From positions 186,001-250,000 of the forward strand of contig JAKOUY010000037.1 in the NCBI GenBank assembly GCA_029782355.1: 64,000 nucleotides of DNA. The letters are read 5' to 3'. Of the stretch, positions 48,983 through 63,998 are shown one piece after another. This DNA comes from Actinomycetes bacterium. Lineage in GTDB: Bacteria > Actinomycetota > Acidimicrobiia > Acidimicrobiales > Ilumatobacteraceae. The position numbers were made by a program, and so were the translations under genes. Position 1 is the stretch's first letter. Every line of letters starts with the position of its first letter. The notes below the pieces were generated by a model. The model was not told where the DNA came from. It was given only the letters and a program-made list of their open reading frames with translations, and searched no databases.

Positions 48983-49600
48983 GTGACGGCCGACCCGCTG
49001 GCCGGGCTGACCCGGATCATCGCCGCCCGGCGGATGACCCGCCGCTTCGACGGCTCGCCGCTGCCCGACGGGCTGCTCGACCGGCTGCTCGACACCGCCC
49101 GGCGGGCGCCGACGGCCGGCTTCAGCCAGGGCTGCCACTTCCTCGCGCTGCAGGGGCCGGCGCTGCAGCGCTGGTGGGAGCTGACCGTCGAGCCGGGGTG
49201 GGCCGACCGGATCGCCGCCGGCGTCGGCCGAGCCGGCGCGGTGGTCATCCCGGTGGCCGACCCGGTGGCCTACACCACCCGCTACGCCGCGCCCGACAAG
49301 CAGCACACCGGGCTGGCCGAGCGATCGGCCTGGCCGGTCCCGTTCTGGTTGACCGATACCGCGATGGCCACCCAGAACCTCCTGCTCCTGGCCGAGGCGG
49401 CCGGACTCGGCGCCCTGCTGTACGGCCTGTTCGGCACCGAGCGGGCCGTGCTCCAGGACACCTTCGGCGTGCCCGAGACGATGGAGCCGCTCGGGGTGGT
49501 GGCCCTCGGTGGGCGGTCCGGCGACGATCGGCCGAGCGGCTCGCCGACCCGTCGGCCGCGCCGGCCGACCGCCGAGGTCGTCCATCACGACCACTGGTGA
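48983..49600 (+). CDS. Nitroreductase family protein
   Basis: FMN-binding oxidoreductase of 205 residues. The N-terminal RRMTRRFDG (FMN phosphate contacts) and RRAPTAGFSQG are typical, as are the central helix DTAMATQNLLLLAEAAGLG and the late PLGVVALGG. A basic Arg/Pro segment and HHDHW finish the protein. The substrate (nitroaromatic, quinone, or flavin-linked dehalogenation-type reactions) is unknown. The GTG at 48983 is the best start and gives the fold with a minimal leader. Confidence 0.87.
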   Translation: MTADPLAGLTRIIAARRMTRRFDGSPLPDGLLDRLLDTARRAPTAGFSQGCHFLALQGPALQRWWELTVEPGWADRIAAGVGRAGAVVIPVADPVAYTTRYAAPDKQHTGLAERSAWPVPFWLTDTAMATQNLLLLAEAAGLGALLYGLFGTERAVLQDTFGVPETMEPLGVVALGGRSGDDRPSGSPTRRPRRPTAEVVHHDHW

Positions 49601-49652
49601 GCGCAGCTCGGGGTTCGGCCCGGCCGATTCGCCGGGCCCGCCGCCCCGTCCG

Positions 49653-49658
49653 TACGCT
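49653..49658 (+). promoter_or_regulatory. Predicted -10 hexamer of the DUF35-thiolase operon (leaderless)
   Basis: TACGCT followed by exactly 7 bases and the ATG at 49666. Confidence 0.55.
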
Positions 49659-49665
49659 CGACGGC

Positions 49666-50058
49666 ATGTCCGCCCAGATCCCCCTCGTCGACTACCTGGC
49701 GCTCGGCGACCGGCCGCACCTCGTCGCCCACGAGTGCACCGCCTGCGGCGCCCGGTTCTTCGACCGGCGCAATGCCTGCGCCTCGTGCTCGGCCACCGAG
49801 TTCCGTGACGCCGACGTGGCGACCGACGGCGAGCTGCGCGCCTACACGATCGTCAGCTTCGCCGCCCCGGGCATCCCCGTGCCGTTCGTCGCCGGCGTCG
49901 TCGACTGCGCCGGGACCAGCGTGCGCAGCAACATCATCAACGTCGACCCGACGCCCGAGGCGGTCCGGCTGGGCATGCCCGTCCGCCTGGCGACGTACTC
50001 CCTCGGCATCGACGACGACGGCGTCGAGGCCATCGGCTTCGGCTTCGAGCCGGCGTGA
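49666..50058 (+). CDS. DUF35 zinc-ribbon/OB-fold acyl-CoA-binding protein
   Basis: A 130-residue protein. The zinc ribbon has CTACG and CASC (four Cys at about 24-27 and 39-42), followed by an OB-fold. DUF35 proteins are obligate partners of SCP2-type thiolases and related acyl-CoA enzymes, guiding CoA substrates or stabilising the complex. The thiolase gene follows 40 bases downstream, matching that pairing. The ATG is supported by the TACGCT hexamer. Confidence 0.9.
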   Translation: MSAQIPLVDYLALGDRPHLVAHECTACGARFFDRRNACASCSATEFRDADVATDGELRAYTIVSFAAPGIPVPFVAGVVDCAGTSVRSNIINVDPTPEAVRLGMPVRLATYSLGIDDDGVEAIGFGFEPA

Positions 50059-50098
50059 CCGACCGACGAACACCCACCAGCACAGGAGCAGCACGACG

Positions 50099-51301
50099 AT
50101 GAGCGACGCAGTCTGGATCCTCGGGATCACGATGACCAAGTTCGGCAAGCACGCCGACAAGGACGTCATCGACCTGGCCGCGGAGGCCGCCCTCGGCGCC
50201 CTGGCCGACGGTGGGGTGTCGATGACCGACATCGGCGTGCTCGCCGCCGGCAACCTGATGGGCGGCGGCGCCCCGACCGGCCAGCTGATCCAGAAGCAGA
50301 TCGGCCAGACCGGGATCCCCGTGTTCAACGTATCCAACGCCTGTGCCACCGGCGCCACCGCACTGCGCACGACGATCATGGCGATCAAGGCCGGCGAGTG
50401 CGACATGGGCTTGGCCGTCGGGGTCGAGAAGCTGGCCGGCGCCGGGCTGCTGGCCGGTGGGTCGGCCAAGACGGACGGCAACCACTGGACCCCCAGGGGG
50501 CGGTACGGATCGGTGGCCGGGGTCGACGGTCGGATCGGCACGGACACGATGCCGGGCACCTTCGCCCAGATCGGGATGGAGTACGGCCACCGCTACGGTG
50601 GCGCCAGCTTCGAGCTGTTCGCCCGGATCAGCGAGAAGAACCATGCGCACAGCACGCTGAACCCGCTTGCCGCCTACACCAAGGCGATGAGCCTCGAGCA
50701 GATCATGGGCGACGTGATGATCGCCTACCCGAACACCCGGCCGATGTGCAGCGCCAACTGCGACGGCGCGGCGGCCGCCGTGGTGGTCAGCGACGCCAAG
50801 CTGAAGACCCTGTCCGCCGAGCAGCGCCGCCGGGCGGTCAAGGTGGCCGCCTCCGTGCTGACCTCGGACCCGTGGGAGGAGGCCTGCCAGATCCTGCCGA
50901 ACGTCAACACCCTGACCCGCAACGCCGCCCGCCAGGCCTACGAGCAGGCCGGCGTCGGCCCCGAGGATCTCGACCTCGTCGAGCTGCACGACTGCTTCGC
51001 CACCGCCGAGCTGGTCCACTACGACAACCTGATGCTGTGTCCCGAGGGCGGGGCGGTCGACTTCTTCAACTCCGGCGCCCCCTGGCGCGACGGGTCGACC
51101 CCGGTCAACGTGTCCGGTGGGCTGCAGTCCAAGGGCCACCCGATCGCCGCTACGGGCATCGCCAACATCTGGGAGATCTGCCACCACCTCCGCGGCGAGG
51201 CCGGACCCCGCCAGATCGAGGGCGCCCGGGTCGGTCTGGCCCACGTCATCGGCCTCGGCTCGGCCTGCGGCGTGCACATCCTGGAGCGCTCGGCGGCCTG
51301 A
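50099..51301 (+). CDS. SCP2-type thiolase (lipid-transfer-protein family)
   Basis: Thiolase-fold protein of 400 residues acting on acyl-CoA. The nucleophile Cys is in SNACATGATAL at about 83-93. The later catalytic region has LHDCFATAELVHYDN (the SCP-x/LTP type) and GGLQSKGHPIAATG (catalytic His). With the DUF35 partner it resembles steroid or acyl-CoA retro-aldol/thiolytic enzymes such as Ltp2; the direction and substrate are unknown. The ATG has AGGAG at about 50084-50088. Confidence 0.9.
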   Translation: MSDAVWILGITMTKFGKHADKDVIDLAAEAALGALADGGVSMTDIGVLAAGNLMGGGAPTGQLIQKQIGQTGIPVFNVSNACATGATALRTTIMAIKAGECDMGLAVGVEKLAGAGLLAGGSAKTDGNHWTPRGRYGSVAGVDGRIGTDTMPGTFAQIGMEYGHRYGGASFELFARISEKNHAHSTLNPLAAYTKAMSLEQIMGDVMIAYPNTRPMCSANCDGAAAAVVVSDAKLKTLSAEQRRRAVKVAASVLTSDPWEEACQILPNVNTLTRNAARQAYEQAGVGPEDLDLVELHDCFATAELVHYDNLMLCPEGGAVDFFNSGAPWRDGSTPVNVSGGLQSKGHPIAATGIANIWEICHHLRGEAGPRQIEGARVGLAHVIGLGSACGVHILERSAA

Positions 51302-51353: not shown

Positions 51354-53834
51354 ATGCCCGAGCTGCCGTCGTCGGCCCAGGTGGTGGTCGTCGGGGGCGG
51401 GATCGTCGGCTGCTCGACCGCCTACCACCTCGCCCGGCTCGGCCTGACCGACACCGTCCTGGTCGAGCAGCACCAGCTGACCTCCGGTTCGACGTTCCAC
51501 GCCGCCGGTCTGGTCGGTCAGCTGCGCACCTCGGCCAACATCACCCAGCTGCTCGGCTCGTCGATCGAGCTGTATCGCACGCTGGAGGCCGAGACCGGCC
51601 AGGCGACCGGGTGGAAGATGAACGGCGGGCTGCGCCTGGCGTGCAACCCCGAGCGGTGGACCGAGGTCCGCCGCCAGGCGACCACCGCGGCCAGCTTCGG
51701 CTTGGAGATGCACCTGCTGTCCGCCGCCGAGGCCCAGGCCCTGTGGCCGCTGATGGAGGTCGACGACGTCGTCGGCGCAGCGTTCCTGCCGACCGACGGC
51801 CAGGCCAATCCGAGCGACATCACCATGGCCCTGGCCCGCGGCGCCCGCCAGGCCGGGGTGACCATCGCCGAGCACACCGAGGTCCGCTCGATCGAGGTGG
51901 AGCGCGGCGTGATCCGCGCCGTCGTCACCGATCGCGGCCGGATCGAGTGCGAGAAGGTGGTCATCTGCGCCGGGCAGTGGACCCGGGCGCTGGCTGCCAC
52001 CGTGGGCGTCAACGTCCCGCTGGTCAGCGTCCAGCACCACTACCTGATCACCGAGCCGTTCGACCCGCCGGTGCCGCGAACCCTGCCGACGCTGCGCGAC
52101 CCGGACCGGCTGACCTACTTCAAAGAGGAGGTCGGCGGGCTGGTGATGGGCGGCTACGAGCCCGACCCGGTGCCGTGGGCGATCGGCGGGATCCCCCGGC
52201 CCTTCCACTTCCAGCTGCTCGAGCCGGACGTCGACCACGTCGCGCCGATCATGGACGCGGCCTGCCGGCGAGTCCCGGCCCTCGCCGACGCCGGCATCCG
52301 CCAGCTGATCAACGGTCCGGAGAGCTTCACCCCGGACGGCAACTTCATCCTCGGCGAGGCCCCCGAGCTGGCCAACCTGTTCGTCGGCGCCGGGTTCAAC
52401 GCCTTCGGCATCGCCGCCGGCGGTGGGGCAGGCATGGCCCTGGCGGAGTGGGTCCAGACCGGCCGACCACCGTACGACCTGTGGGTGGTGGACATCCGCC
52501 GCTTCGGCAGCGGGCACCGCGACACGGCCTGGGTGCGGTCGCGCACGCTGGAGGCCTACGCCAAGCACTACACCATGGCCTGGCCGTTCGAGGAGCACCG
52601 CAGCGGGCGCCCGCTGCGGACCTCACCGCTCTACGAACGGCTGGCCCGGCGCGGGGCGTGCTTCGGCGAGAAGCTCGGTTGGGAACGGCCCAACTGGTTC
52701 GCCAATCCGGCCCGCGGCGAGGAACCGGTGGACCGCTACACGTACGGCCGGCAGAACTGGTTCGATGCAGTGCGCCGCGAGCACCTGGCCTGCCGGGAGG
52801 CGGCGGTGCTGATCGACCAGACCAGCTTCGCCAAGTACGTGCTGCGCGGTCCGGATGCCGGCGCGGCGTTGCAGTGGGTGTGCGCCAACGACCTCGACAA
52901 GCCGGCGGGCGCGCTGACCTACACCCAGCTGCTCGACGAGCGCGGCGGGATCCAGTGCGATCTCACCGTGGCCCGGGTGGCCGACGACGAGTGGTACCTG
53001 GTCACCGGCACCGGCTTTGCCACCCACGATGCCCACTGGATCCGCACCAACCTGCCGGCCGGCGCCCGAGCCGAGCTGGTCGACGTGACCTCGGCGTGGT
53101 CAGTGCTGAGCCTGATGGGCCCGAACAGCCGGTCGATCCTCGCCGGGTTGCTCGATGCCGGCGACGAGCCCGGCGATCAGCTCGGCAACGAGCGGTTCCC
53201 CTTTGCCACGATGCGCCACCTGGGCGTCGCCGGGTGCCCGGTGCGCGCCCTGCGGATCACCTACCTGGGCGAGCTCGGCTGGGAGTTGCACGTGCCCGTC
53301 GAGTACGCCCCGCGCCTGTACGACGCGCTGATCGATGCCGGCCGGGACCACGGTCTGGTCGATGCCGGCTACCGGGCGATCGAGAGCTGCCGGCTGGAGA
53401 AGGGCTACCGGGCGTGGGGCAGCGACATCGGCCCCGACCACACCCCACTGGAGGCCGGACTGGGCTGGGCGGTCCGCCGCCGCGGCCCGGACTTCCTCGG
53501 CCGAGCGGCCATCGACGCCCAGCGCGACCACGGGATCGGCAAGCTGCTGGCCACGTTCACCACCGACCCGGACGCCGTCCTGCTGGGCCGGGAGACGATC
53601 CTGCGCGACGGCCAGCGCGTCGGTTGGCTGACCAGCGCCGGCTACGGCTACACCGTCGAGCGCTCGATCGGCCTCGGCTACGTCCGCCGGCCGACCGCCC
53701 CGGCACCGCCGGCCGAGTTCGCCCGGTGGGTCTTGGCCGGCGACTACCAGCTGGACGTCGCCGGCCAGCGGGTCCCGGCGCAGGTCACCCTGCGCCCGCT
53801 GTACGACCCCGAGCACACCCGGGTCCGTGGATGA
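51354..53834 (+). CDS. FAD/GcvT fusion dehydrogenase (dimethylglycine/sarcosine dehydrogenase-like), copy 1
   Basis: An 826-residue protein. The N-terminal FAD-dependent oxidoreductase domain has the dinucleotide motif VVVGGGIVGCSTAYHL at about 10-25. GSTFHAAG places His49 where the DMGDH/SARDH family binds FAD covalently. The C-terminal half (from about 430) is an FAO_M/GcvT tetrahydrofolate-binding aminomethyltransferase region with DQTSFAKYVL and LGELGWELH. Family chemistry is N-demethylation with transfer of formaldehyde to tetrahydrofolate. Which amine is used is not shown. Its stop overlaps the next gene (ATGA). Confidence 0.92.
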   Translation: MPELPSSAQVVVVGGGIVGCSTAYHLARLGLTDTVLVEQHQLTSGSTFHAAGLVGQLRTSANITQLLGSSIELYRTLEAETGQATGWKMNGGLRLACNPERWTEVRRQATTAASFGLEMHLLSAAEAQALWPLMEVDDVVGAAFLPTDGQANPSDITMALARGARQAGVTIAEHTEVRSIEVERGVIRAVVTDRGRIECEKVVICAGQWTRALAATVGVNVPLVSVQHHYLITEPFDPPVPRTLPTLRDPDRLTYFKEEVGGLVMGGYEPDPVPWAIGGIPRPFHFQLLEPDVDHVAPIMDAACRRVPALADAGIRQLINGPESFTPDGNFILGEAPELANLFVGAGFNAFGIAAGGGAGMALAEWVQTGRPPYDLWVVDIRRFGSGHRDTAWVRSRTLEAYAKHYTMAWPFEEHRSGRPLRTSPLYERLARRGACFGEKLGWERPNWFANPARGEEPVDRYTYGRQNWFDAVRREHLACREAAVLIDQTSFAKYVLRGPDAGAALQWVCANDLDKPAGALTYTQLLDERGGIQCDLTVARVADDEWYLVTGTGFATHDAHWIRTNLPAGARAELVDVTSAWSVLSLMGPNSRSILAGLLDAGDEPGDQLGNERFPFATMRHLGVAGCPVRALRITYLGELGWELHVPVEYAPRLYDALIDAGRDHGLVDAGYRAIESCRLEKGYRAWGSDIGPDHTPLEAGLGWAVRRRGPDFLGRAAIDAQRDHGIGKLLATFTTDPDAVLLGRETILRDGQRVGWLTSAGYGYTVERSIGLGYVRRPTAPAPPAEFARWVLAGDYQLDVAGQRVPAQVTLRPLYDPEHTRVRG

Positions 53835-56305
53835 ACGACGACGGCCGCCATCACCCGGAGCCGGCGCTGCCCGATCGGGCGCGCCTCGTGATCGTCGGCG
53901 GGGGGATCCTCGGCTGCTCGATCGCCTACTGGCTGACGGCGTACGGCGAGACCGACGTGGTCCTGCTGGAGCGCCACCAGTTGACCGACGGGGCCACCTG
54001 GCACGCCGCCGGGCTGGTGGGCCAGCTGCGCTCGTCGCGCAACACGACGCGCATGCTGGAGATGTCGGTGGAGATGTACCGCGGCCTGGAGGCCGAGACC
54101 GGTCAGGCCGTCGACTGGCACGAGACCGGCAGCCTGCGCCTGTCGTGCAGCCCGGAGCGGACCATGGAGCTGCGCCGGCTGGCGACGATGGCCAAGTCGT
54201 TCGGCCTGCCGATGGACCTCGTCTCGCCGGCGGAGGCTCAGGCGTTGTTCCCGCTGATGAGCACCGACGGGGTCGAGGCGGCCTGCTTCCTGCCGACTGA
54301 CGGGTACATCGATCCGGCGTCGGTCACCCAGGCCATCGCCCGCGGCGCCCGCCAGCGTGGCGCCCGGATCGCCGAGCACACCGAGGTGACTGCGATCGAG
54401 GTCGATGGACGGCGGTGCACGGCGGTGCGCACCGCCGGCGGGCAGCGGATCGAGTGCGAGATGGTGGTCAACGCCGCCGGCATGTGGGGCATGGAGTTGG
54501 GCCGGATGGTGGGAGCCCGGGTCCCAGCGGTGGCCGTCGAGCACCAGTACCTGCTGTCCGGCCCGATCGACGGCTGGACCCCGGTGGAGCTGGGCCGGCT
54601 GCCGACGATGCGCGACCCCGATCACCTCGTCTACTACAAGCCCGACGGGCCCGGCCTGCTGGTGGGAGGGTACGAGCCGGACACGATCGCCTTCGGGGTC
54701 GACCAGGACATCCCCGCGCCGTTCCGCCGCCGGCTGTTCGAGCCCAACGTCGAGCGCTTCGCCCAGCTGGCCGAGCTGGCCGCCCGGCGCACGCCCGTGC
54801 TGGAGGCCGCCGGGATCCGCAGCCTGATCAACGGGCCGATCCCGTACTCGGCCGACGCCGACTTCGTCATGGGTCGGGTTCCGGAACTCGACAACTTCTA
54901 CGCGGCCACCGGCTTCCTGTACGGCATCGCCGCCGGCGGTGGCGCCGGGCGGATGATGGCCGAATGGATGCTGGAGGGCCGTCCGTCGCTGGACCTGTGG
55001 CCGCTCGACGTGCGCCGCTTCGCCTTCCACCACACCACCCGGCACTTCCTCGGCCGGCGACTGGTGGAGCTGTACGGCCATCACTACCGGCTGGCCGCCC
55101 CCGGGACCGAGCACGTCACCGCCCGGGGCATCCGCCGCAGCCCGTTGCACGACCGCCTCGCCGGACGCGGCGCGGTGTTCGGTTCGCGCGGTGGCTGGGA
55201 GCGTCCGAACTGGTTCGCCCCGCCCGGGGTCGAGGCCGTCGACCGCCCGTCGTTCACCGGCGGCAACTCGTGGGAGCACGTCGCCGCCGAGGCCATCGCC
55301 GTGCGCTCCGGCGTCGGCCTGATCGACCAGACCAGCTTCGCCAAGTTCGAGCTGAGCGGGCCGGGTGCGCTGGCGACGGTGCAGTGGCTGTCCGTCGCCG
55401 ACATGGACCGCCCGGTCGGCACGGTGACCTACACCCAGCTGTGCAACGAGCGCGGTGGCATCGAGTGCGATCTCACCATGGCCCGCATCGCCGCCGACAC
55501 CTGGTACGTCGTCACCGGTGCGGCGTTCGGCGCCCACGACATCGGCTGGATCCGCGCCCACGCCCCGACCGACGGTTCGGTGCAGATCCGCGACGTGACG
55601 TCGGCCCACGCGGTGCTCAACCTGTGCGGGCCACGGGCCCGGGACGTGCTGGCGGCGGTGTGCGAGGACGACGTGTCCAACGCCGCCTTCCGCTATGGGC
55701 AGGCCCGCCGGTTGACGGTCGGGTCGGCGCCCGTCCTGGCGCTGCGGGTCGGGTACACGGGCGAGCTCGGCTGGGAGCTGCACGTGCCCACGGAGTATGC
55801 CGGGCACCTCGACGAGGTCCTGCGCGCCGCCGGCGAGGCCCACGGCCTCGTCGACGTCGGCTACCGGGCCGTCGACCGGCTGCGGGTGGAGAAGGGCTAC
55901 GTCTACTGGTCGACCGACGTCACCCCGGACACCACCCCGCTGGAGGCCGGCCTGGGTTGGCGGATCGCCTGGGACCGCGGCGACTTCTGCGGGCGGGAGG
56001 CGCTCGTGGCCCAGCGGGCCGCCGGCGTCACCCGCCGGCTGTGCACCTACACGCTGGAGCTACCGCCCGGGGAGATGGCCCACCCGGTGGGCGGCGAGGC
56101 GATCCTGTCGGGCGGCGAGGTCATCGGCTTCACCACCACGGCGAACTTCGGCCACGCGGTGGGCAAGCCGGTGGTCTATGGCTACGTGCCGATCGAGCAG
56201 GCCGTGGCCACCGACGCGGTCGTCGAGGTGTACGGCGTGCCGATCCCGGCTCGGCGCCATGACGGCCCGCTGTACGATCCCGCCGGGGAACGACTGCGCG
56301 CATGA
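53831..56305 (+). CDS. FAD/GcvT fusion dehydrogenase, copy 2
   Basis: An 824-residue paralogue of the preceding protein with the same architecture. The dinucleotide motif is VIVGGGILGCSIAYWL at about 20-35; WHAAGLVGQLRSS puts the covalent-FAD histidine at 58. The GcvT half has DQTSFAKFEL and TGELGWELH and ends normally. The two copies agree through most motifs but differ in the N-terminus and in many pocket residues, so they may act on successive methyl groups or on different amines. ATGA overlaps occur on both sides. Confidence 0.92.
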   Translation: MNDDGRHHPEPALPDRARLVIVGGGILGCSIAYWLTAYGETDVVLLERHQLTDGATWHAAGLVGQLRSSRNTTRMLEMSVEMYRGLEAETGQAVDWHETGSLRLSCSPERTMELRRLATMAKSFGLPMDLVSPAEAQALFPLMSTDGVEAACFLPTDGYIDPASVTQAIARGARQRGARIAEHTEVTAIEVDGRRCTAVRTAGGQRIECEMVVNAAGMWGMELGRMVGARVPAVAVEHQYLLSGPIDGWTPVELGRLPTMRDPDHLVYYKPDGPGLLVGGYEPDTIAFGVDQDIPAPFRRRLFEPNVERFAQLAELAARRTPVLEAAGIRSLINGPIPYSADADFVMGRVPELDNFYAATGFLYGIAAGGGAGRMMAEWMLEGRPSLDLWPLDVRRFAFHHTTRHFLGRRLVELYGHHYRLAAPGTEHVTARGIRRSPLHDRLAGRGAVFGSRGGWERPNWFAPPGVEAVDRPSFTGGNSWEHVAAEAIAVRSGVGLIDQTSFAKFELSGPGALATVQWLSVADMDRPVGTVTYTQLCNERGGIECDLTMARIAADTWYVVTGAAFGAHDIGWIRAHAPTDGSVQIRDVTSAHAVLNLCGPRARDVLAAVCEDDVSNAAFRYGQARRLTVGSAPVLALRVGYTGELGWELHVPTEYAGHLDEVLRAAGEAHGLVDVGYRAVDRLRVEKGYVYWSTDVTPDTTPLEAGLGWRIAWDRGDFCGREALVAQRAAGVTRRLCTYTLELPPGEMAHPVGGEAILSGGEVIGFTTTANFGHAVGKPVVYGYVPIEQAVATDAVVEVYGVPIPARRHDGPLYDPAGERLRA

Positions 56306-57203
56306 ACGATTCGGCCGACACGTGGGACGAGGTGCTGCGGCGCGTCCCGTGGCTGGCCGGGCTCGGCCACCGGCAACGTCTGGCCGGGCTGACCAACGTC
56401 AACCATCGGGTCGGGCCGTACGTCGTCCGCCAGGCCGGGGCCGGCACCGCCGAGTACATCGATCGCCGGGCCGAAGAGGTCGCCGCCCGCTCGGCGGCGG
56501 CCGCCGGGGTCAATGCCGAGGTGCGGTTCTTCGACCCGTCGGACGGTCTGATGGTCACCGCGTATCTGGAGGGGACGCGCCCGATGACCGTCGACGCGTT
56601 CCGTGCCGACGACGGAGCCGTGGCCCGTGCCGCCGACGTGCTCCGCCGGCTGCACACCCGCGCCGCCCCCTTCGCCATCGACTTCCGGCTGTTCGAAGCG
56701 ATCGACGAGTACCGGGCGCTGCTCGACGCCAAGGGGGCGACGCTGCCCGACGGCTACGCCGAGGTGCGCGACGCCTCGGAGACGGCCCGGGCCGCCCTGG
56801 CCCGCCACCCGGTCGCCGCGGTCCCGAGCCACTGCGACCCGCTGTGCGAGAACTTCCTCGACGACGGGACGCGCATGTACCTGATCGACTACGAGTACGC
56901 CGGCAACTTCGACCCGATGTGGGACCTCGGCGACCTCAGCGTGGAGGCCGGGTTCGACGAACGCCAGGACGACCTGCTGCTGGCCGCGTACTTCGACGGG
57001 GCGGTTCCCGCGCCGGAGCGGGCCCGGATGGTGGTGTACCAGGCGATGTGCGATCTGCTGTGGTCGCTGTGGGGCATCCTCCAGCACGTCAACGACAACC
57101 CGGCCGAGGACTTCTGGGTCTACGGCTGCGGGCGCCTGGCGCGCTGCCGGACCCTGATGGCCACGACTCGCTATGCCGACAGCATCGCCACCCTGGAGGC
57201 CGG

Positions 57204-57207
<4 letters not shown>
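56302..57207 (+). CDS. Choline/ethanolamine-kinase-like phosphotransferase
   Basis: Protein-kinase-like (APH/ChoK) phosphotransferase of 301 residues. The glycine-rich region LAGLTNVNHRVG, the catalytic loop SHCDPLCENFL (Asp and Asn), and the metal Asp in LIDYEYAG followed by NFDPMWDLGD match choline kinase/LicA more closely than aminoglycoside kinases. It probably phosphorylates choline or a related amino alcohol. Its place between the dehydrogenases and the transporter supports a role in amine handling, with aminoglycoside kinase unlikely. Confidence 0.85.
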
Positions 57208-58288
<1,081 letters not shown>

Positions 58289-58292
<4 letters not shown>

Positions 58293-60232
58293 CCCGCCGC
58301 CGGCCGATGGTGGCCGCCGGGGTGGCCGCGGCCATCGTCGTGGCCGCCGTGCTGGCCAGCTGGTGGCTCGGCAGCGAGGTGCCGACGTGGTGGAACAGCC
58401 ACCTGCAGCCGTGGGCCCGGGACACCTTCCGCTGGATCAGCCGCAATCGAACCCACCACTGGCTGTTCGTCGACGTCTTCACCCCACTGGCCCGGGCGAT
58501 GAGCTCGATGGTCGACGCCGTGCTGTGGACGCTGCGCTCGCTGCGCTGGCCGGGACTCGCCGCCGTCGTCGGCGTGGTCGCGTGGCGAACCGGCGGATGG
58601 ACGGCGGCGGCGGTCAGCCTCGGGTCGCTGGCGGTGATCGGTGTCGTCGGCTACTGGAGCCTGACGATGATCACCCTGGCGATCATGATCGTGGCCATCG
58701 TCGTGGCGATGCTGATCGGCGTGCCGCTCGGCATCTGGAGCGCCCGCTCGCCGCGTGTCAGCGCCCTGCTGCAACCGGTGCTGGACACCGCCCAGGTGAT
58801 CCCGGCGTTCTCCTACCTCGGCCTGTTGACGTTGGCCTTCGGCATCAAGTCGCCGCCGGTCATCGCCGCCACGGTGATCTACGCCGTGCCTCCGGCGGTG
58901 CGGATCACCGCCCTCGGCATCCGCCAGGTGCCCGTCGTGCTGAACGAGGTCGGGTCCAGCTTCGGCGCCACGCCCCGCCAGCACCTGCGCAAGGTGCAGT
59001 TGCCGGTGGCCCGCCGAACCCTGCTGCTCGGGCTCAACCAGGTGATCATGATGGCCTTCGGCATCGTCGTCATCGGCTCGCTGCTCGGCACCGGCGACAC
59101 CGGCAACGAGGTGCTGCGCGGCCTGCAGAAGCTCGATGTCGGCAAGGCCACCGCCGCGGGTCTCGCCATCGTCGCCGCCGCCGTCATGCTCGATCGGGCG
59201 ACGACCGGCCAGCGCCTCGGGCGCCCGCCGGCCCACGGGCGAGCGATCGTCGGCGGCGGGTTGGTCCTCGCCGTCCTCGGTGCGCTGGTCGCCAAGCTCG
59301 GTGGGTGGGCGCCGTTTCCCACCGCCTGGGTGGTCGACATCACCGGCAGCGTCAAGCACGCCTCGACGTGGGTCCAGGAGCACCTGCGCAACGGGATCCC
59401 TCTGATCGGCGGCACCGAGGCGATCTCCCGGGTCCTGGTCGTCGACGTGCTCGAGCCGTTGCGCAAGCTGCTCACCTGGTTGCCCTGGCTGGTCGTCGTC
59501 GGCCTGTTCGCCGCGGCCGGGTGGCTCAGCAAGGGGTGGCGGCTGGCCGTCGTGCTGGTCGGCTGCTTGGCGGCCATTGCGGCGATGGGTGACGTGGCCG
59601 GCGGCGGCGTGGGGCGCAACCCGATGTGGGACCTGGCGATGGACACCCTGAGCCAGGTGGTGGTCGCCGTGCTGATCAGCCTGGTCATCGCCGTACCGCT
59701 CGGGATCCTGGCCGGCCGCTCCCGGGTGGTCCACGCCGTGCTCCGCCCGGTGCTGGACCTGGCCCAGGTCATGCCGCAGTTCGTCTACCTGGTGCCGGTG
59801 CTGTTCCTGTTCAACGCCGGGCGGTCGGCCGGCGTCGTCGCCTGCGTGGTCTACGCCGTGCCGCCCGGCATCCGCCTGACCGCCCTCGGCCTGCGCGAAG
59901 TGCCGGTGACCCCGCGTGAGGCAGCGATCTCCTTCGGGGCGACCTCCGGTCAGGAGCTGCGCAAGGTGCAGTTGCCGCTGGCGATGCGCTCCGTCCTCCT
60001 CGGCATCAACCAGACGGTGCTCCTGGCCCTGGCCACGGTGGTCATCGCCGCGCTGATCGGTGCGGGCGGTCTGGGGCTGACCTCACTGGGCGGGATGATC
60101 AAGCAACAGCAGAACTTCGGTCCCGGCCTGGCGGCGGGGTTGAGTATTGTGCTGCTGGCCGTCGCCCTCGATCGCCTGACGCAGGCGTGGGGCCAGGGCG
60201 GGCCAACCAGTTCAGGGGGAACCAACACATGA
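58289..60232 (+). CDS. Double permease of the quaternary-amine ABC transporter
   Basis: A 647-residue membrane protein containing two ProW/OpuAB-type permease domains in one chain. The first EAA-like coupling loop is SFGATPRQHLRKVQLP at about 230-245; the second is SFGATSGQELRKVQLP at about 550-565. Each half has its own set of helices, with a hydrophobic linker between. Normal ProW-like permeases have one domain and form a homodimer, so this fusion would be a covalent heterodimer. It is overlapped by ATPase and binding-protein genes. Confidence 0.9.
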
Positions 60233-61296
60233 AGTCTCGTCGTGCCATTCTCGGCACCGCCGCCGCCGTGTGCGTCGCCGGTGCGCTGTCCGGCGTTGCC
60301 CGGGCGACCACCCCGCCCGCCGGGAGCACGCCGTCGCCGGAGGCGACGGTGGCCCCGCTGACCACCGAGCAGCCGTTGACCAAGGCCAAGGTGACCCTCG
60401 CGGTCAACCCGTGGACCGGGTCGGCGGTGAACGCCAACATCGCCAAGGTCGTCCTGGAGTCCAAGCTGGGCACCCCGGTCGAGCTGGTCGACATCGACGA
60501 GAACGCCTCGTGGCCGGGCCTCGACGACGGCTCGATCGACGCCAATCTGGAGATCTGGCCGTCCGGCCACGCCGCCGACTACGAGACGTACATCACCCAG
60601 AACCAGTCGGTCGTCGACCTCGGCCCGCTCGGCCCGCAGGCCAAGATCGGCTGGTACGTGCCCAAGTTCGTGGTCGACGCCCACCCCGAGTTGGCCACGT
60701 GGGAGGGGTTCAAGGATCCGGCATTGGCCAAGCTGTTCGCCACGCCGGAGACCGGAGAGCTCGGCCAGTTCCTGATGGGCGATCCCTCGTACGTGACCTA
60801 CGACGAGCAGATCATCAAGAACCTCAAGCTGCCCCTGAAGTACGTGGTCGGCGGCTCCGAGGCCGCGCTGCTGTCGGCCATCGACAAGGCCGTCGCCGAT
60901 CAGACGCCGCTGCTCTTCCAGTTCTGGAAGCCGCACTGGAAGCAGCTCGAGGTCCCGCTGGTGGAGGTCAAGCTGCCGGACGTGACCCCGGAGTGTCTCG
61001 CCTCGGCCAAGGCCGCTGACGGCAACTATGCCTGCGACTACGCCCCGGACAACCTCTACAAGGCGGCGTCGGCCAAGCTGAAGGACAAGAACCCCGACGC
61101 CTGGGCGCTCCTCAGCAACCTGAAGCTGACCACCGAGCAGCAGTCCGAGGTGGCCGGATGGATCGACCGCGACAAGATGAGCCCAGCGGCCGCCGCGGCG
61201 CGCTTCGTCACCGCTCACGCCGACGTCGTCGCCGGGTGGTTGGCTGGCGGGTCCACGCCCGGAACGACCGCCGGCACCACCGCCAGCACCGGCTGA
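60229..61296 (+). CDS. Substrate-binding protein of the quaternary-amine transporter (OpuAC/ProX-like)
   Basis: Exported binding protein of 355 residues. The signal peptide starts KSRRAILGTAAAV, with a twin-arginine-like pair and likely cleavage after ARA at about 26. There is no convincing lipobox. The mature domain begins KVTLAVNPWTGS, and Trp residues in ENASWPGL, LEIWPSGHAADY and FQFWKPHWK could supply the aromatic cage that holds quaternary ammonium ligands. The last ~20 residues are a Gly/Thr-rich tail. The ATG overlaps the permease stop; GGGGGA lies upstream. Confidence 0.9.
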   Translation: MKSRRAILGTAAAVCVAGALSGVARATTPPAGSTPSPEATVAPLTTEQPLTKAKVTLAVNPWTGSAVNANIAKVVLESKLGTPVELVDIDENASWPGLDDGSIDANLEIWPSGHAADYETYITQNQSVVDLGPLGPQAKIGWYVPKFVVDAHPELATWEGFKDPALAKLFATPETGELGQFLMGDPSYVTYDEQIIKNLKLPLKYVVGGSEAALLSAIDKAVADQTPLLFQFWKPHWKQLEVPLVEVKLPDVTPECLASAKAADGNYACDYAPDNLYKAASAKLKDKNPDAWALLSNLKLTTEQQSEVAGWIDRDKMSPAAAAARFVTAHADVVAGWLAGGSTPGTTAGTTASTG

Positions 61297-61326: not shown

Positions 61327-61986
61327 TCAGCCCGGCAGGGCGATGACGTGCTCGACCACGTCGAGCACCAGGGCGTGCGGGTCGAGGGCCACCAGGACGT
61401 CGTGGACCGCGGCGGCGTCGGGTCCCCAGGCCTCCACCACCGCGGCCAGCGGTGGGGCGTCCGCCGTTCGAGCGTCGATCACCCGGTGGACGATCGCGGC
61501 GCCGATCCCTTCACGAACGGCCACCAGGGCCGGATCGACGAGCGTCTGCATGCGGGCGACGACCTTGGCCAGCGGCCCGGACCCGGGCGCCGGACGTGAG
61601 CCGCCCGGGGCCGTCAGATAGGCGTCCATCCGGCCGATGAAGGTGGCGTGGTCGTCCATCAGCGTCCGGGCGTCCTCGGCACTGGCGAAGGCCCGGCGGG
61701 GATCGAAGAAGGCGTCGACGTCGGCGACGTCGATCACAGTGATGGCGTCGTGGGGGTCGTCCAGCAGGGCGTCGTCGAGGTGGCCGACCCGGGCCAGGTT
61801 GACCACGTAGCGGCGCATGCCCCGAGTCAGCCGGGCGCCGAGCGGGGCGTGGGTCTCGAGGTAGTGGCGCTCGAAGCCGGCATGGTCGAGGCCGGCGGCC
61901 CGCTGGAAGCAGAACACCAGCGTGCCCGGCCGGTTCCCCGAGCCGCTGGCCGGCGGGGTGGCGGCGTGGTCGCCGATCTCGTTCAT
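61327..61986 (-). CDS. EthD-domain (dimeric alpha/beta barrel) protein
   Basis: A 219-residue soluble protein. The first ~110 residues match EthD: GTLVFCFQRAAGLDHAGFER then HYLETHAPLGARL and a late MDAYLTA. The C-terminal half looks like a second, diverged ferredoxin-like unit. EthD proteins support P450 or polyketide-type reactions in some clusters, but no such partner is here. The ATG overlaps the acyltransferase stop (ATGA) and has GGGAGG upstream, so it is translationally coupled to that gene. Confidence 0.78.
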   Translation of the reverse strand: MNEIGDHAATPPASGSGNRPGTLVFCFQRAAGLDHAGFERHYLETHAPLGARLTRGMRRYVVNLARVGHLDDALLDDPHDAITVIDVADVDAFFDPRRAFASAEDARTLMDDHATFIGRMDAYLTAPGGSRPAPGSGPLAKVVARMQTLVDPALVAVREGIGAAIVHRVIDARTADAPPLAAVVEAWGPDAAAVHDVLVALDPHALVLDVVEHVIALPG

Positions 61987-63998
61987 CGCGATCCTCCCTC
62001 GATCCGGGTGTGCTGGCGGGCCTCGAGACCGTCGAGCGCGCCGCGCAGCGCGTCGAGCTCGTGGAACTGGCGGTCCGGCGCGTCGATCACGGTCAGGGCG
62101 TTCTCGAACAGCAGGGCCGACACCGAGTCCGAGCCCCCGATCCGCCCCTGCAGCAGCAGCTGGCGGCCGTGGCCGAGGCAGGCGGTCACCGTCTCGTCAC
62201 GACCGGCAGAGGCCCCGACCGCCCCGCGGCGCAGCGTTGCCGCGACCACCCAGTAGGCATCGACGATGGAGCGCAGGACCACGGGCGCGAGCAGGGGAGT
62301 CCAGCCGTCGAGCAGCGTGGCCGCCGCCTCGGCCCGTGGACCGCGGCGCAACCGGGCCCGCCAGGTGCGTGCCCGGCGGGTGAGGGTGGCGTCCAGCCGG
62401 CGTCGGCAGGCGGCATCGTCGGGGAAGAAGAACTCGGCGCGCAGCAGTCGGCGAATCGCCGCGGCCCGGGCATGCACGGCGTCGACCGGATCGTCGTCGG
62501 CCGGGCCGGGGCCGCCGCCGGCCAGCGCATCGCCGTCGATCAGCTGCTGCAGCGCGACCTGGGCGATGGCCGTGTCGACGAAGTGGTGCAGCACGGTGTT
62601 GCGGTAGTAGGAGGCGACCAGCCGTTGGTCGTCGGTGATCGCGTAGACCTCGTGGTGCCCGCCGGTGACCCGGGTCAAGCCGTCGTGGCGCAGCAGCGGT
62701 TCCAGTGCCGACTCGACCGCGGCATTGGTGGCCAGCCCGTCCGGGTCGGTGAGGGGCAGCCCGGCGTCGTCGATCTCGGCGACGAGCGCGTCCAGTGCGA
62801 GGCGCAGCTCGCCGAGGGTGACGGCGCGCCGCTCGGCCAGCAGGACCAGCGCCACCAGTGCAGTCGGGGTGATCGGGGAGACGTCGTTGATCCGTACGGC
62901 CACCTCATGGGCCAGGGCGCGCAACTGGTCGCGGTGGCGATCCGGGTCGACGGCGTGCGGTGGGCCGAGCTGGGCGCGCAGGGAGACCGGGGGAGCGAAG
63001 CGGACGTGCATGTCGCCGAGGCCGTAGAACTCGCGGTTGCGGCGGACGTAGCCGACGAAGGAGCGAACCGACTCGGACCGCTTGGTGGAGCCGCGGGCGT
63101 AGCGGGCGAACTCCTCGACGTCGATCAGCTCGTCGTAGGTGATCGCCACCGGGATCAGCTGGTAGTCGGCGCAGCGTCCCTCGAGGTAGGCGTCGACCAC
63201 GTAGGCCAGGAGGCCGAGCTTGGGTGGGCCGAGCTTGCCGGTGCGGCTGCGAGTCCCTTCGATGTTCCACTCCAGGCTGAAGCGCTTGCTGGCCAGGTAG
63301 CCGAGGTACTCGCGCAGCACCCATTTGTAGACCTCGTTGTCGCGGAAGCTGCGCCGGATGTAGATGATCCCGTTGCGCCGGCCGATGGCGCCGAACGGGC
63401 CGACGGCCATGTTGGCCCCGCCGAGGCGGTGGTTCGGTGGCAGCCCGTGGTCGCGCAGGACGATGGCCAGAACGGTGGCGTCGAGGTACGAGCGATGGTT
63501 GGAGAGGAACACCGTCGGGTGGGTGGCGGCCGCCTCGGTGACCATGGCGATCTGCGCCGGGTCGGTGTGCACCCGGCCGCGCATGCCGGTGCGGTGGTAC
63601 AGCCGGGCCACCTCGGCGGTGATGTCCACGGCGTGGCGGTTGAGCGTGGCGACCATCTCGTCGAGGTAGGCGGTGGCTTCGGCGCGCACCTCGGCAACGG
63701 TCCGCCCGCTGGCTGCGGCCAGGCGGGCCACGCCGGCGTCGAACCGACCCTGCTCGGTGACCTCGGCCCGCACCTCGATGGGCACCTTGTGGGCGGCACC
63801 GTGGCGGCGGGTGACCTCGCGCTGGAGGGCGACGCGCGCCTGGCGGGACAGGAAGGAGCGGAACCGGCCGGGCCGGGCCGACCCGGGTCGATCGCCGGCG
63901 CTCGAGCGATCGTCGCCGGGCGGGTGCGGGCCGGCGGCGCGGTCGGTCTCGATCCAGCGCTGGCGGACCTCGGACAGTCGCGCCGGCTCGGCCACCAC
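61983..63998 (-). CDS. plsB: PlsB-like glycerol-3-phosphate 1-O-acyltransferase, start near the window edge
   Basis: Membrane-associated acyltransferase, at least 671 residues. The acyl-transfer block is NHRSYLD at 167-173 (the HX4D catalytic pair), followed by FGAIGRRNGIIYIRRSF and EWNIEGTRSRTGKL (glycerol-phosphate binding). This matches the long PlsB/GPAT type rather than PlsC. The GTG at 63998 is the first in-frame start before the window ends; the true start may lie beyond base 64000. It would begin phospholipid synthesis using glycerol-3-phosphate, the product of the glycerol kinase at the other end of the window. Confidence 0.88.
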   Translation of the reverse strand: MVAEPARLSEVRQRWIETDRAAGPHPPGDDRSSAGDRPGSARPGRFRSFLSRQARVALQREVTRRHGAAHKVPIEVRAEVTEQGRFDAGVARLAAASGRTVAEVRAEATAYLDEMVATLNRHAVDITAEVARLYHRTGMRGRVHTDPAQIAMVTEAAATHPTVFLSNHRSYLDATVLAIVLRDHGLPPNHRLGGANMAVGPFGAIGRRNGIIYIRRSFRDNEVYKWVLREYLGYLASKRFSLEWNIEGTRSRTGKLGPPKLGLLAYVVDAYLEGRCADYQLIPVAITYDELIDVEEFARYARGSTKRSESVRSFVGYVRRNREFYGLGDMHVRFAPPVSLRAQLGPPHAVDPDRHRDQLRALAHEVAVRINDVSPITPTALVALVLLAERRAVTLGELRLALDALVAEIDDAGLPLTDPDGLATNAAVESALEPLLRHDGLTRVTGGHHEVYAITDDQRLVASYYRNTVLHHFVDTAIAQVALQQLIDGDALAGGGPGPADDDPVDAVHARAAAIRRLLRAEFFFPDDAACRRRLDATLTRRARTWRARLRRGPRAEAAATLLDGWTPLLAPVVLRSIVDAYWVVAATLRRGAVGASAGRDETVTACLGHGRQLLLQGRIGGSDSVSALLFENALTVIDAPDRQFHELDALRGALDGLEARQHTRIEGGSR

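What the first reader, a model, noticed from the sequence alone, without database searches (positions are those of the whole stretch)
51354..61296. Six-gene ATGA-chained operon for import and demethylation of a methylated amine
Seen: two FAD/GcvT dehydrogenases, a choline-kinase-like protein, and ATPase, double permease and binding protein, each overlapping the next by ATGA, behind one predicted promoter. Known: DMGDH/SARDH enzymes release one-carbon units to tetrahydrofolate; ProX/OpuAC proteins bind quaternary amines by aromatic cages. Inference: the cell takes up choline, betaine or a related osmolyte, phosphorylates some, and oxidises methyl groups from the rest. This combination with a kinase is unfamiliar to me as a described operon.
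Basis: partly seen in the sequence, partly recalled or inferred. Interest (0 to 1): 0.55.

Follow-up and report, generated by a model that had tools for sequence, protein, structure and literature searches.

The report
Operon stripping methyls from phosphorylated ethanolamines
A six-gene bacterial operon probably imports methylated relatives of ethanolamine (the amine found in cell-membrane lipids), tags them with phosphate and then removes their methyl groups one at a time, a food route that appears not to have been described before.

Summary
In detail: six genes at 51354-61296, all five junctions being ATGA overlaps. They encode two DMGDH-like FAD/GcvT proteins (A, B), a choline-kinase-fold protein (K), a ProV-like ATPase, a two-domain permease and an OpuAC-type binding protein. 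I found no plus-strand promoter match. The set is conserved, not scattered. The inference that choline or betaine is split between kinase and demethylases is only partly right. The evidence favours a series: K phosphorylates an N-methylated ethanolamine, then B and A demethylate the phosphate ester to phosphoethanolamine, passing methyl groups to folate. (i) K keeps the LicA choline pocket. (ii) Kinases with that full pocket adjoin B-type dehydrogenases (43 pairs), altered-pocket kinases adjoin A-type (47), with no cross-pairs. (iii) Twice on the dehydrogenase tree the kinase is missing and 2-aminoethylphosphonate genes lie nearby; a phosphonate needs no kinase. (iv) Salipiger and two actinobacterial relatives carry ethanolamine gamma-glutamylation genes beside the module; a phosphatase recurs. 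Nothing has been assayed, and my literature searches found no such pathway.

The parts
51354..53834 (+). FAD/GcvT dehydrogenase A (F1 type), 826 aa; covalent-FAD His49, Arg58 in the GLVGQLR motif, dyad His228/Tyr255, folate-site Asp536
   Evidence: Pfam; DMGDH and DMGO as closest solved structures; residues; F1 clade
53831..56305 (+). FAD/GcvT dehydrogenase B (F2 type), 824 aa; His58, Arg67, dyad His238/Tyr268, Asp547
   Evidence: Pfam; alignment with DMGO incl. Asp552; residues; F2 clade
56302..57207 (+). Choline-kinase-like phosphotransferase K, 301 aa, full aromatic ammonium pocket (Tyr199, Trp254, Trp257, Tyr274, Glu215) and catalytic Asp179/Asn184/Asp196
   Evidence: Pfam Choline_kinase; 3dxq and LicA as closest structures; pocket
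57204..58292 (+). ABC transporter ATPase, ProV-like
   Evidence: TIGR01186 proV 345.7 bits, over its cut-off 326.6
58289..60232 (+). Double ABC permease, two ProW-like domains in one chain
   Evidence: two BPD_transp_1 stretches; TIGR03416 392.9 bits, over its cut-off 363
60229..61296 (+). Substrate-binding protein, OpuAC fold; aromatic box Trp62, Trp110, Tyr188, Trp233
   Evidence: Pfam OpuAC; alignment with 4xz6 read against the TmoX pocket; residues

Best explanation
The operon encodes import and stepwise, phosphorylation-first N-demethylation of methylated ethanolamines. The ABC importer (V, W, X) brings in a small quaternary or tertiary amino alcohol, most likely N,N-dimethylethanolamine, with choline or N-methylethanolamine possible. 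K phosphorylates the hydroxyl group. B and A, FAD/GcvT dehydrogenases related to dimethylglycine dehydrogenase, then oxidise the N-methyl groups in turn and pass each as methylene to tetrahydrofolate (dimethyl- to monomethyl- to phosphoethanolamine). The phosphate takes the place of the carboxylate that DMGDH uses. Phosphoethanolamine goes to lipid or is dephosphorylated to ethanolamine, which in relatives enters the gamma-glutamyl route to glycine, serine and pyruvate. Shown by sequence: gene set, domains, catalytic residues, kinase pocket, pairing rule, conservation, neighbours. Inferred: substrate identity, order of kinase before dehydrogenase, which dehydrogenase takes which methyl, role of Arg58/Arg67, direction of carbon flow in this organism.
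For: Kinase pocket: the LicA choline site is Tyr197, Trp251, Trp254, Tyr268, Glu213, Asp176 (PMC4364537, passages); by the alignment the window kinase has Tyr199, Trp254, Trp257, Tyr274, Glu215, Asp179, invariant in A1 and in 80 of 80 genome loci. Pairing: kinases with Glu215/Trp254 adjoin F2-type dehydrogenases in 43 pairs, kinases with Asn215/Glu254 adjoin F1-type in 47, no cross-pairs. Phosphonate exchange: 7 FAD/GcvT genes in 6 loci lie within about 1-12 kb of PhnW/PhnA/PhnY with no kinase found there; the tree needs two separate changes to that label, both inside the 42-row clade of 28 kinase-linked, 7 phosphonate-linked and 7 unlinked rows. Product: in Salipiger (L091) the module is followed by EtfBA, FolD, PurU and an amidohydrolase / GS-like / aldehyde DH / Fe-ADH set whose GS orthologues (68 and 66%) sit in the gene order of the characterised Phaeobacter ethanolamine operon; GS-like and aldehyde DH genes lie beside A-B-K in L098 and beside a FAD-kinase pair in L063; EutH follows the module in Nitratireductor. 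Dephosphorylation: the IMPase beside the module in Ruegeria AD91A is 67% identical to one in an R. conchae operon with the ethanolamine gene set. Catalysis: DMGO His225, Tyr259 and Asp552 correspond to A 228/255/536 and B 238/268/547. Motif GLVGQLR (or close form): 118 of 125 kinase-linked, 7 of 7 phosphonate-linked, 14 of 40 other FAD/GcvT sequences; absent from rat DMGDH and DMGO.
Against: No activity was measured and no structure was modelled, so Arg58/Arg67 as phosphate ligand is a guess. Five kinase-adjacent dehydrogenases lack the GQLR motif (L061, L080-L083), and a sub-clade with the motif has neither kinase nor phosphonate genes. Sixteen kinases of one family (L064-L079; 43-51% identical) have no adjacent dehydrogenase of this kind, 12 of them following a methyltransferase gene, so the kinase is not tied to demethylation everywhere. 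The window itself has no DeoR, phosphatase or ethanolamine genes next to the operon. Its genome has no EutB, and its nearest GS-like gene (44%) stands alone on another contig. No Rieske oxygenase is next to the operon, so choline would need a first demethylation by another enzyme. The dehydrogenases are homologues of DMGDH throughout, and the sequences counted share ancestry.
Confidence: 0.62

Rival explanations
1. The dehydrogenases work on free N-methylated ethanolamines and the kinase acts last, trapping ethanolamine as phosphoethanolamine for phospholipid synthesis.
For: The same genes and product are explained; 16 kinases of one family lie away from such dehydrogenases, so the kinase has other uses.
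Against: A full aromatic ammonium box suits a quaternary or tertiary amine better than ethanolamine. Kinase type tracks dehydrogenase type. Near phosphonate genes the dehydrogenase stands without a kinase, where its likely substrate already bears an anionic phosphorus group.
Confidence: 0.15
2. Ordinary glycine betaine / dimethylglycine / sarcosine catabolism with a betaine importer; the kinase is incidental or feeds choline to lipid synthesis.
For: Closest solved relatives are DMGDH and DMGO; the importer is of the choline/betaine type.
Against: Dimethylglycine has no hydroxyl group to phosphorylate. The dehydrogenases form a clade apart from the kinase-free rows outside it, which carry other residues at the GQLR site. 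Neighbours in relatives are ethanolamine genes, EutH and phosphonate genes, and the strict kinase-dehydrogenase pairing would be unexplained.
Confidence: 0.13
3. Same logic, different amino alcohol: a longer or branched N-methylated amino alcohol is phosphorylated and demethylated.
For: Pocket residues report the ammonium head more than the chain; the best NCBIfam kinase model is GntI, a kinase of another small molecule, well under its cut-off.
Against: 2-Aminoethylphosphonate is a near-isostere of ethanolamine phosphate, and the linked Salipiger genes match the ethanolamine route.
Confidence: 0.1

Closest known systems
Dimethylglycine dehydrogenase / dimethylglycine oxidase (rat DMGDH 4p9s, Arthrobacter DMGO 1pj5)
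   Same: Domain order FAD + central + GcvT; covalent-FAD His (by homology), His-Tyr dyad and folate-site Asp kept
   Different: Own clade, GLVGQLR motif, fixed kinase or phosphonate partnership; substrate probably carries phosphate instead of carboxylate
Choline kinase LicA (4r77) and Mesorhizobium 3dxq
   Same: Kinase fold motifs; the LicA choline pocket is conserved; 3dxq is a close family member (E 2.5e-153)
   Different: LicA feeds cell-wall phosphocholine; this kinase lies in a catabolic operon, and the paralogous F1-linked kinase has Glu and Asn in two pocket positions
ProU/ChoXWV/Tmo-type ABC importers
   Same: ATPase and permease each pass one curated ProU/ChoXWV-family cut-off; the binding protein keeps an aromatic box
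   Different: Two fused permease domains; the TMAO-binding Glu131 of TmoX is Ile140 here, so TMAO itself is unlikely
Ethanolamine gamma-glutamyl pathway of Phaeobacter MED193 (PMC10132767)
   Same: Its catabolic gene set directly follows the demethylation module in Salipiger
   Different: Starts from free ethanolamine taken up by a TRAP transporter; no demethylation or kinase described there in the passages seen
PbfC/PbfD FAD enzymes of phosphonate degradation (PMC10590968)
   Same: FAD enzymes of the DAO group that act on N-methyl-2-aminoethylphosphonate
   Different: They give phosphonoacetaldehyde and methylamine; the text has no mention of GcvT or tetrahydrofolate (term counts). The genes here would give AEP and methylene-folate

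Membership tests
DMGDH/DMGO-type FAD/GcvT enzymes | DAO + FAO_M + GCV_T + GCV_T_C domains in one chain | tested here: met
   both proteins, all four over Pfam cut-offs
DMGDH/DMGO-type FAD/GcvT enzymes | His-Tyr catalytic dyad and folate-site Asp of DMGO | tested here: met
   alignment with 1pj5 and 3gsi, positions checked
DMGDH/DMGO-type FAD/GcvT enzymes | acts on N-methylated glycine | not testable with these tools
   needs assay; clade and context argue against
Choline kinase (LicA-like) | phosphotransferase motif HxDxxxxN plus second Asp | tested here: met
   His177-Asp179-Asn184 and Asp196
Choline kinase (LicA-like) | aromatic choline pocket and Glu | tested here: met
   six of six LicA residues (Tyr197, Trp251, Trp254, Tyr268, Glu213, Asp176) matched
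NCBIfam kinase equivalogs GntI and thiamine kinase | score over curated cut-off | tested here: not met
   132.7 of 357 and 40.9 of 299.45 bits
ChoXWV choline ABC transporter | all three subunits over curated cut-offs | tested here: not met
   permease met (392.9 of 363), ATPase 343.2 of 483.75, binding protein 73.3 of 379.05
TMAO transporter TmoX | aromatic box plus Glu131 | tested here: not met
   four aromatic positions kept (one Trp to Tyr), Glu131 is Ile140
Ethanolamine gamma-glutamyl pathway in the window's genome | GS-like gene linked to aldehyde DH and Fe-ADH | tested here: inconclusive
   a 44% GS homologue exists on another contig; no marker partner within the 19.5 kb read

The most novel reading that the evidence does not exclude
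A widespread, plasmid-borne and chromosomal catabolic pathway in which the amine is phosphorylated first so that phosphate serves as the handle for folate-linked N-demethylation. Two kinase-dehydrogenase pairs are tuned to different methylation states (full aromatic pocket for the more methylated, Glu-substituted pocket for the less methylated ethanolamine), and the dehydrogenases were recruited twice to demethylate N-methylated 2-aminoethylphosphonates, where no kinase is needed.
Probability: 0.5. Interest if true: 0.72.

Novelty: new variant of a known kind. Interest (0 to 1): 0.62.

Why it matters
If true, methylated head-groups of phospholipids and methylated aminophosphonates are consumed by one shared enzyme logic, linking lipid nitrogen, one-carbon units and phosphorus. 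It would give a function to many genes annotated only as FAD-dependent oxidoreductase or choline/ethanolamine kinase family protein, including the choline/ethanolamine kinase family structure 3dxq and a gene on pSymB of Sinorhizobium meliloti 1021. The pairing rule makes sharp predictions that simple enzyme assays can test.

Tried and rejected
Parallel fates (kinase for some substrate, demethylase for the rest): dropped because of the strict pairing and the phosphonate exchange. TMAO as substrate: the TmoX Glu is not kept. EutBC route in this genome: no EutB. Class III aminotransferase (possible phosphoethanolamine phospho-lyase): eight hits, none near the operon; two of the regions were read with markers only, so undecided. 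GbcA-like Rieske in this genome: matches under the cut-off, none beside the operon. Reading a large composite ORF list for high-GC loci gave mostly spurious antisense frames; I used marker matches instead. Literature: (open-licence PMC only) returned no paper describing kinase-linked FAD/GcvT demethylation; I saw listings and, for PMC10590968, PMC5082570, PMC10132767, PMC8918994, PMC4744692 and PMC4364537, passages only. Structure prediction and fold search were not run, because sequence matches already fix the folds and I expected no coordinates to measure.
Full report
WHAT IS THERE. The window (GC 0.73) holds six genes on the + strand at 51354-61296, each starting inside the end of the one before through an ATGA overlap, five of five junctions. 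Genes A and B carry DAO, FAO_M, GCV_T and GCV_T_C; K is a Choline_kinase-family protein; then come an ABC ATPase, a permease with two membrane domains, and an OpuAC binding protein. A thiolase gene on the same strand ends 52 bases upstream, preceded by a ChsH2-like OB-fold protein. The scan found no + strand promoter match between 49000 and 61900, so 'one predicted promoter' is not confirmed.

CONSERVATION. In the 45 loci with at least 9 kb on each side, 36 have a FAD/GcvT gene within 3 kb, 38 the three transporter genes, 33 both. The closest relatives of A, B and K are in Actinomycetota MAGs (for example L098 at 71, 76 and 62%; L104 at 76, 74 and 63%), with the transporter downstream (L098, L101) or divergent (L102, L104, L105). 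Rhizobiaceae and roseobacters carry the same modules, often on plasmids: Rhizobium rosettiformans has DeoR, binding protein, ATPase, double permease, kinase K1, dehydrogenase F1, dehydrogenase F2, kinase K2; Ruegeria AD91A carries kinase-F1 and F2-kinase at separate sites of one plasmid. A is of F1 type, B of F2 type, and K is the K2-type kinase.

THE KINASE. Its family includes the solved structure 3dxq (E 2.5e-153) and LicA (6.4e-44). LicA binds choline with Tyr197, Trp251, Trp254, Tyr268 and Glu213, with Asp176 on the hydroxyl (PMC4364537, passages). Read through the alignment, the window kinase has Tyr199, Trp254, Trp257, Tyr274, Glu215 and Asp179, all invariant in the six-sequence alignment and in 80 of 80 genome loci. 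The other kinase type, K1, has Asn for the Glu (47 of 47) and Glu for the first Trp (47 of 47). Of 179 kinases, 116 have Glu215 and Trp254, 59 the Asn/Glu form, 4 something else. In the plasmid loci, the 80 genome loci and the window, same-strand neighbours within 150 bases pair box kinases with F2 43 times and Asn/Glu kinases with F1 47 times, never crosswise. My reading is that the two pairs serve different methylation states; the window has F1 and F2 but only the box kinase, as expected if a phosphorylated intermediate passes from B to A.

THE DEHYDROGENASES. Best solved relatives are DMGDH and DMGO. The DMGO residues His225, Tyr259 and Asp552 (the last seen as Ala in chain 3gsi) fall on A His228, Tyr255, Asp536 and B His238, Tyr268, Asp547 (the functional role of Asp552 is recalled, the His-Tyr dyad is in PMC5082570, passages), and the His that carries FAD in DMGDH (position recalled) aligns with A His49 and B His58. 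Both have GLVGQLR after that His; rat DMGDH has LTTYFHP and DMGO LVFQTNP there. Across 172 FAD/GcvT sequences the motif is in 118 of 125 that are kinase-linked, 7 of 7 phosphonate-linked and 14 of 40 others. Of the seven kinase-linked without it, two are incomplete at that point (L055, L174) and five are second dehydrogenases in L061 and L080-L083. These rows share ancestry, and the role of the Arg is a guess.

THE PHOSPHONATE EXCHANGE. FAD/GcvT genes of the same clades lie without a kinase near PhnW, PhnA and PhnY in Ensifer, Phyllobacterium, two Aminobacter, Hoeflea YIM 152468 and S. meliloti 1021, one of them (L097) also beside a Rieske oxygenase and reductase. On a 49-row tree (ultrafast bootstrap and SH-aLRT) the phosphonate label needs two changes, both inside a clade with support 100/100 that holds all 28 kinase-linked rows chosen, the 7 phosphonate-linked rows and 7 rows with neither; the nearest relatives of the main phosphonate group, L044 and L050, have a kinase next door. 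The five f21-type kinase-adjacent dehydrogenases without the motif were left out of this tree; they branch apart. Ethanolamine phosphate and 2-aminoethylphosphonate are near-isosteres, so the simplest reading is that these dehydrogenases see an N-methyl-2-aminoethyl group ending in phosph(on)ate, and that the kinase supplies the phosphate where the substrate lacks it. The known FAD enzymes acting on N-methyl-AEP give phosphonoacetaldehyde and methylamine (PMC10590968, passages).

THE PRODUCT. In Salipiger abyssi the module is followed by EtfBA, FolD, PurU, an N-formylglutamate-amidohydrolase-like protein, a GS-like protein, aldehyde DH, Fe-ADH, GlyA and serine deaminase. The same four-enzyme set with a TRAP transporter is the ethanolamine operon of Phaeobacter MED193 (PMC10132767, passages), and orthologues in strain SC52 and Marinovum (GS 68 and 66% identical) keep that order. 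GS-like (46%) and aldehyde DH (54%) genes lie beside A-B-K in L098, an aldehyde DH in L099, and GS-like and aldehyde DH genes beside a FAD-kinase pair in L063. EutH follows kinase-FAD/GcvT in Nitratireductor. An inositol-monophosphatase-family protein beside kinase-F1 in Ruegeria AD91A is 67% identical to one in an R. conchae operon with the ethanolamine set, a plausible phosphoethanolamine phosphatase. GlyA would join glycine with the methylene-folate made by demethylation; that is inference.

THE IMPORTER. ATPase and permease each pass one betaine/choline-family cut-off; the binding protein does not. By the alignment with TmoX 4xz6 and its published pocket (PMC8918994, passages) the aromatic box is kept (Trp62, Trp110, Tyr188, Trp233), while Glu131, Phe106 and Phe220 are Ile140, His114 and Gln231. 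This fits a methylated ammonium compound other than TMAO.

AGAINST. Sixteen related kinases in one family (L064-L079) have no adjacent FAD/GcvT gene of this kind and mostly follow a methyltransferase gene (12 of 16). A sub-clade with the motif lacks kinase and phosphonate genes; one member lies by an IMPase and an AEP-type ABC transporter. The window has no DeoR, IMPase or ethanolamine gene beside the operon, no EutB in the genome, and an unlinked GS homologue. [quoted passage not shown] none is beside this operon.

VERDICT. Observation confirmed; interpretation partly supported and refined. Best reading, 0.62: serial import, phosphorylation and folate-linked demethylation of N-methylated ethanolamines. 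Enzyme kinds are known; the combination is, as far as the searches listed in Tried and rejected reach, undescribed.

Noticed in passing
L097:3376-8204 (Aminobacter niigataensis plasmid): Rieske oxygenase, reductase and an F2-clade FAD/GcvT gene near a phosphonate operon: a candidate full demethylation route for N-trimethyl-2-aminoethylphosphonate, different from the published one.
   Followed up: partly
L064-L079 (16 kinase loci of one family in the phylum): Choline-kinase-like gene following a SAM-dependent methyltransferase gene in 12 of 16 loci, without FAD/GcvT; possibly the reverse direction, methylation of phosphoethanolamine.
   Followed up: partly
L113:9236-9907 (-) and about 20 similar loci: A class I methyltransferase gene divergent from the K2 kinase in 21 of 80 loci, mostly where F2 is missing.
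   Followed up: partly
L224, L226, L227, L229, L230, L234-L236, L243, L247: Tandem pair of FAD/GcvT genes (one with GQLR, one without), sometimes near Rieske or EtfBA genes, no kinase: a second, unidentified demethylation system.
   Followed up: partly
L062:7781-10764: EutH gene overlapping a gene for a fused nucleotidyltransferase-choline kinase.
   Followed up: no
window 49174-51301: ChsH2-like OB-fold/zinc-ribbon protein and a thiolase directly upstream on the same strand, possibly co-transcribed with the operon.
   Followed up: no
window 61327-63998 (-): EthD-domain gene and a GPAT-like acyltransferase gene, overlapping by 4 bases, convergent with the operon.
   Followed up: no
L009, L011, L012, L013 (own genome): The window's genome has further FAD/GcvT or GcvT-domain paralogues on three contigs, including a tandem pair at C35:211557-214660 and a SoxA-like gene.
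   Followed up: partly
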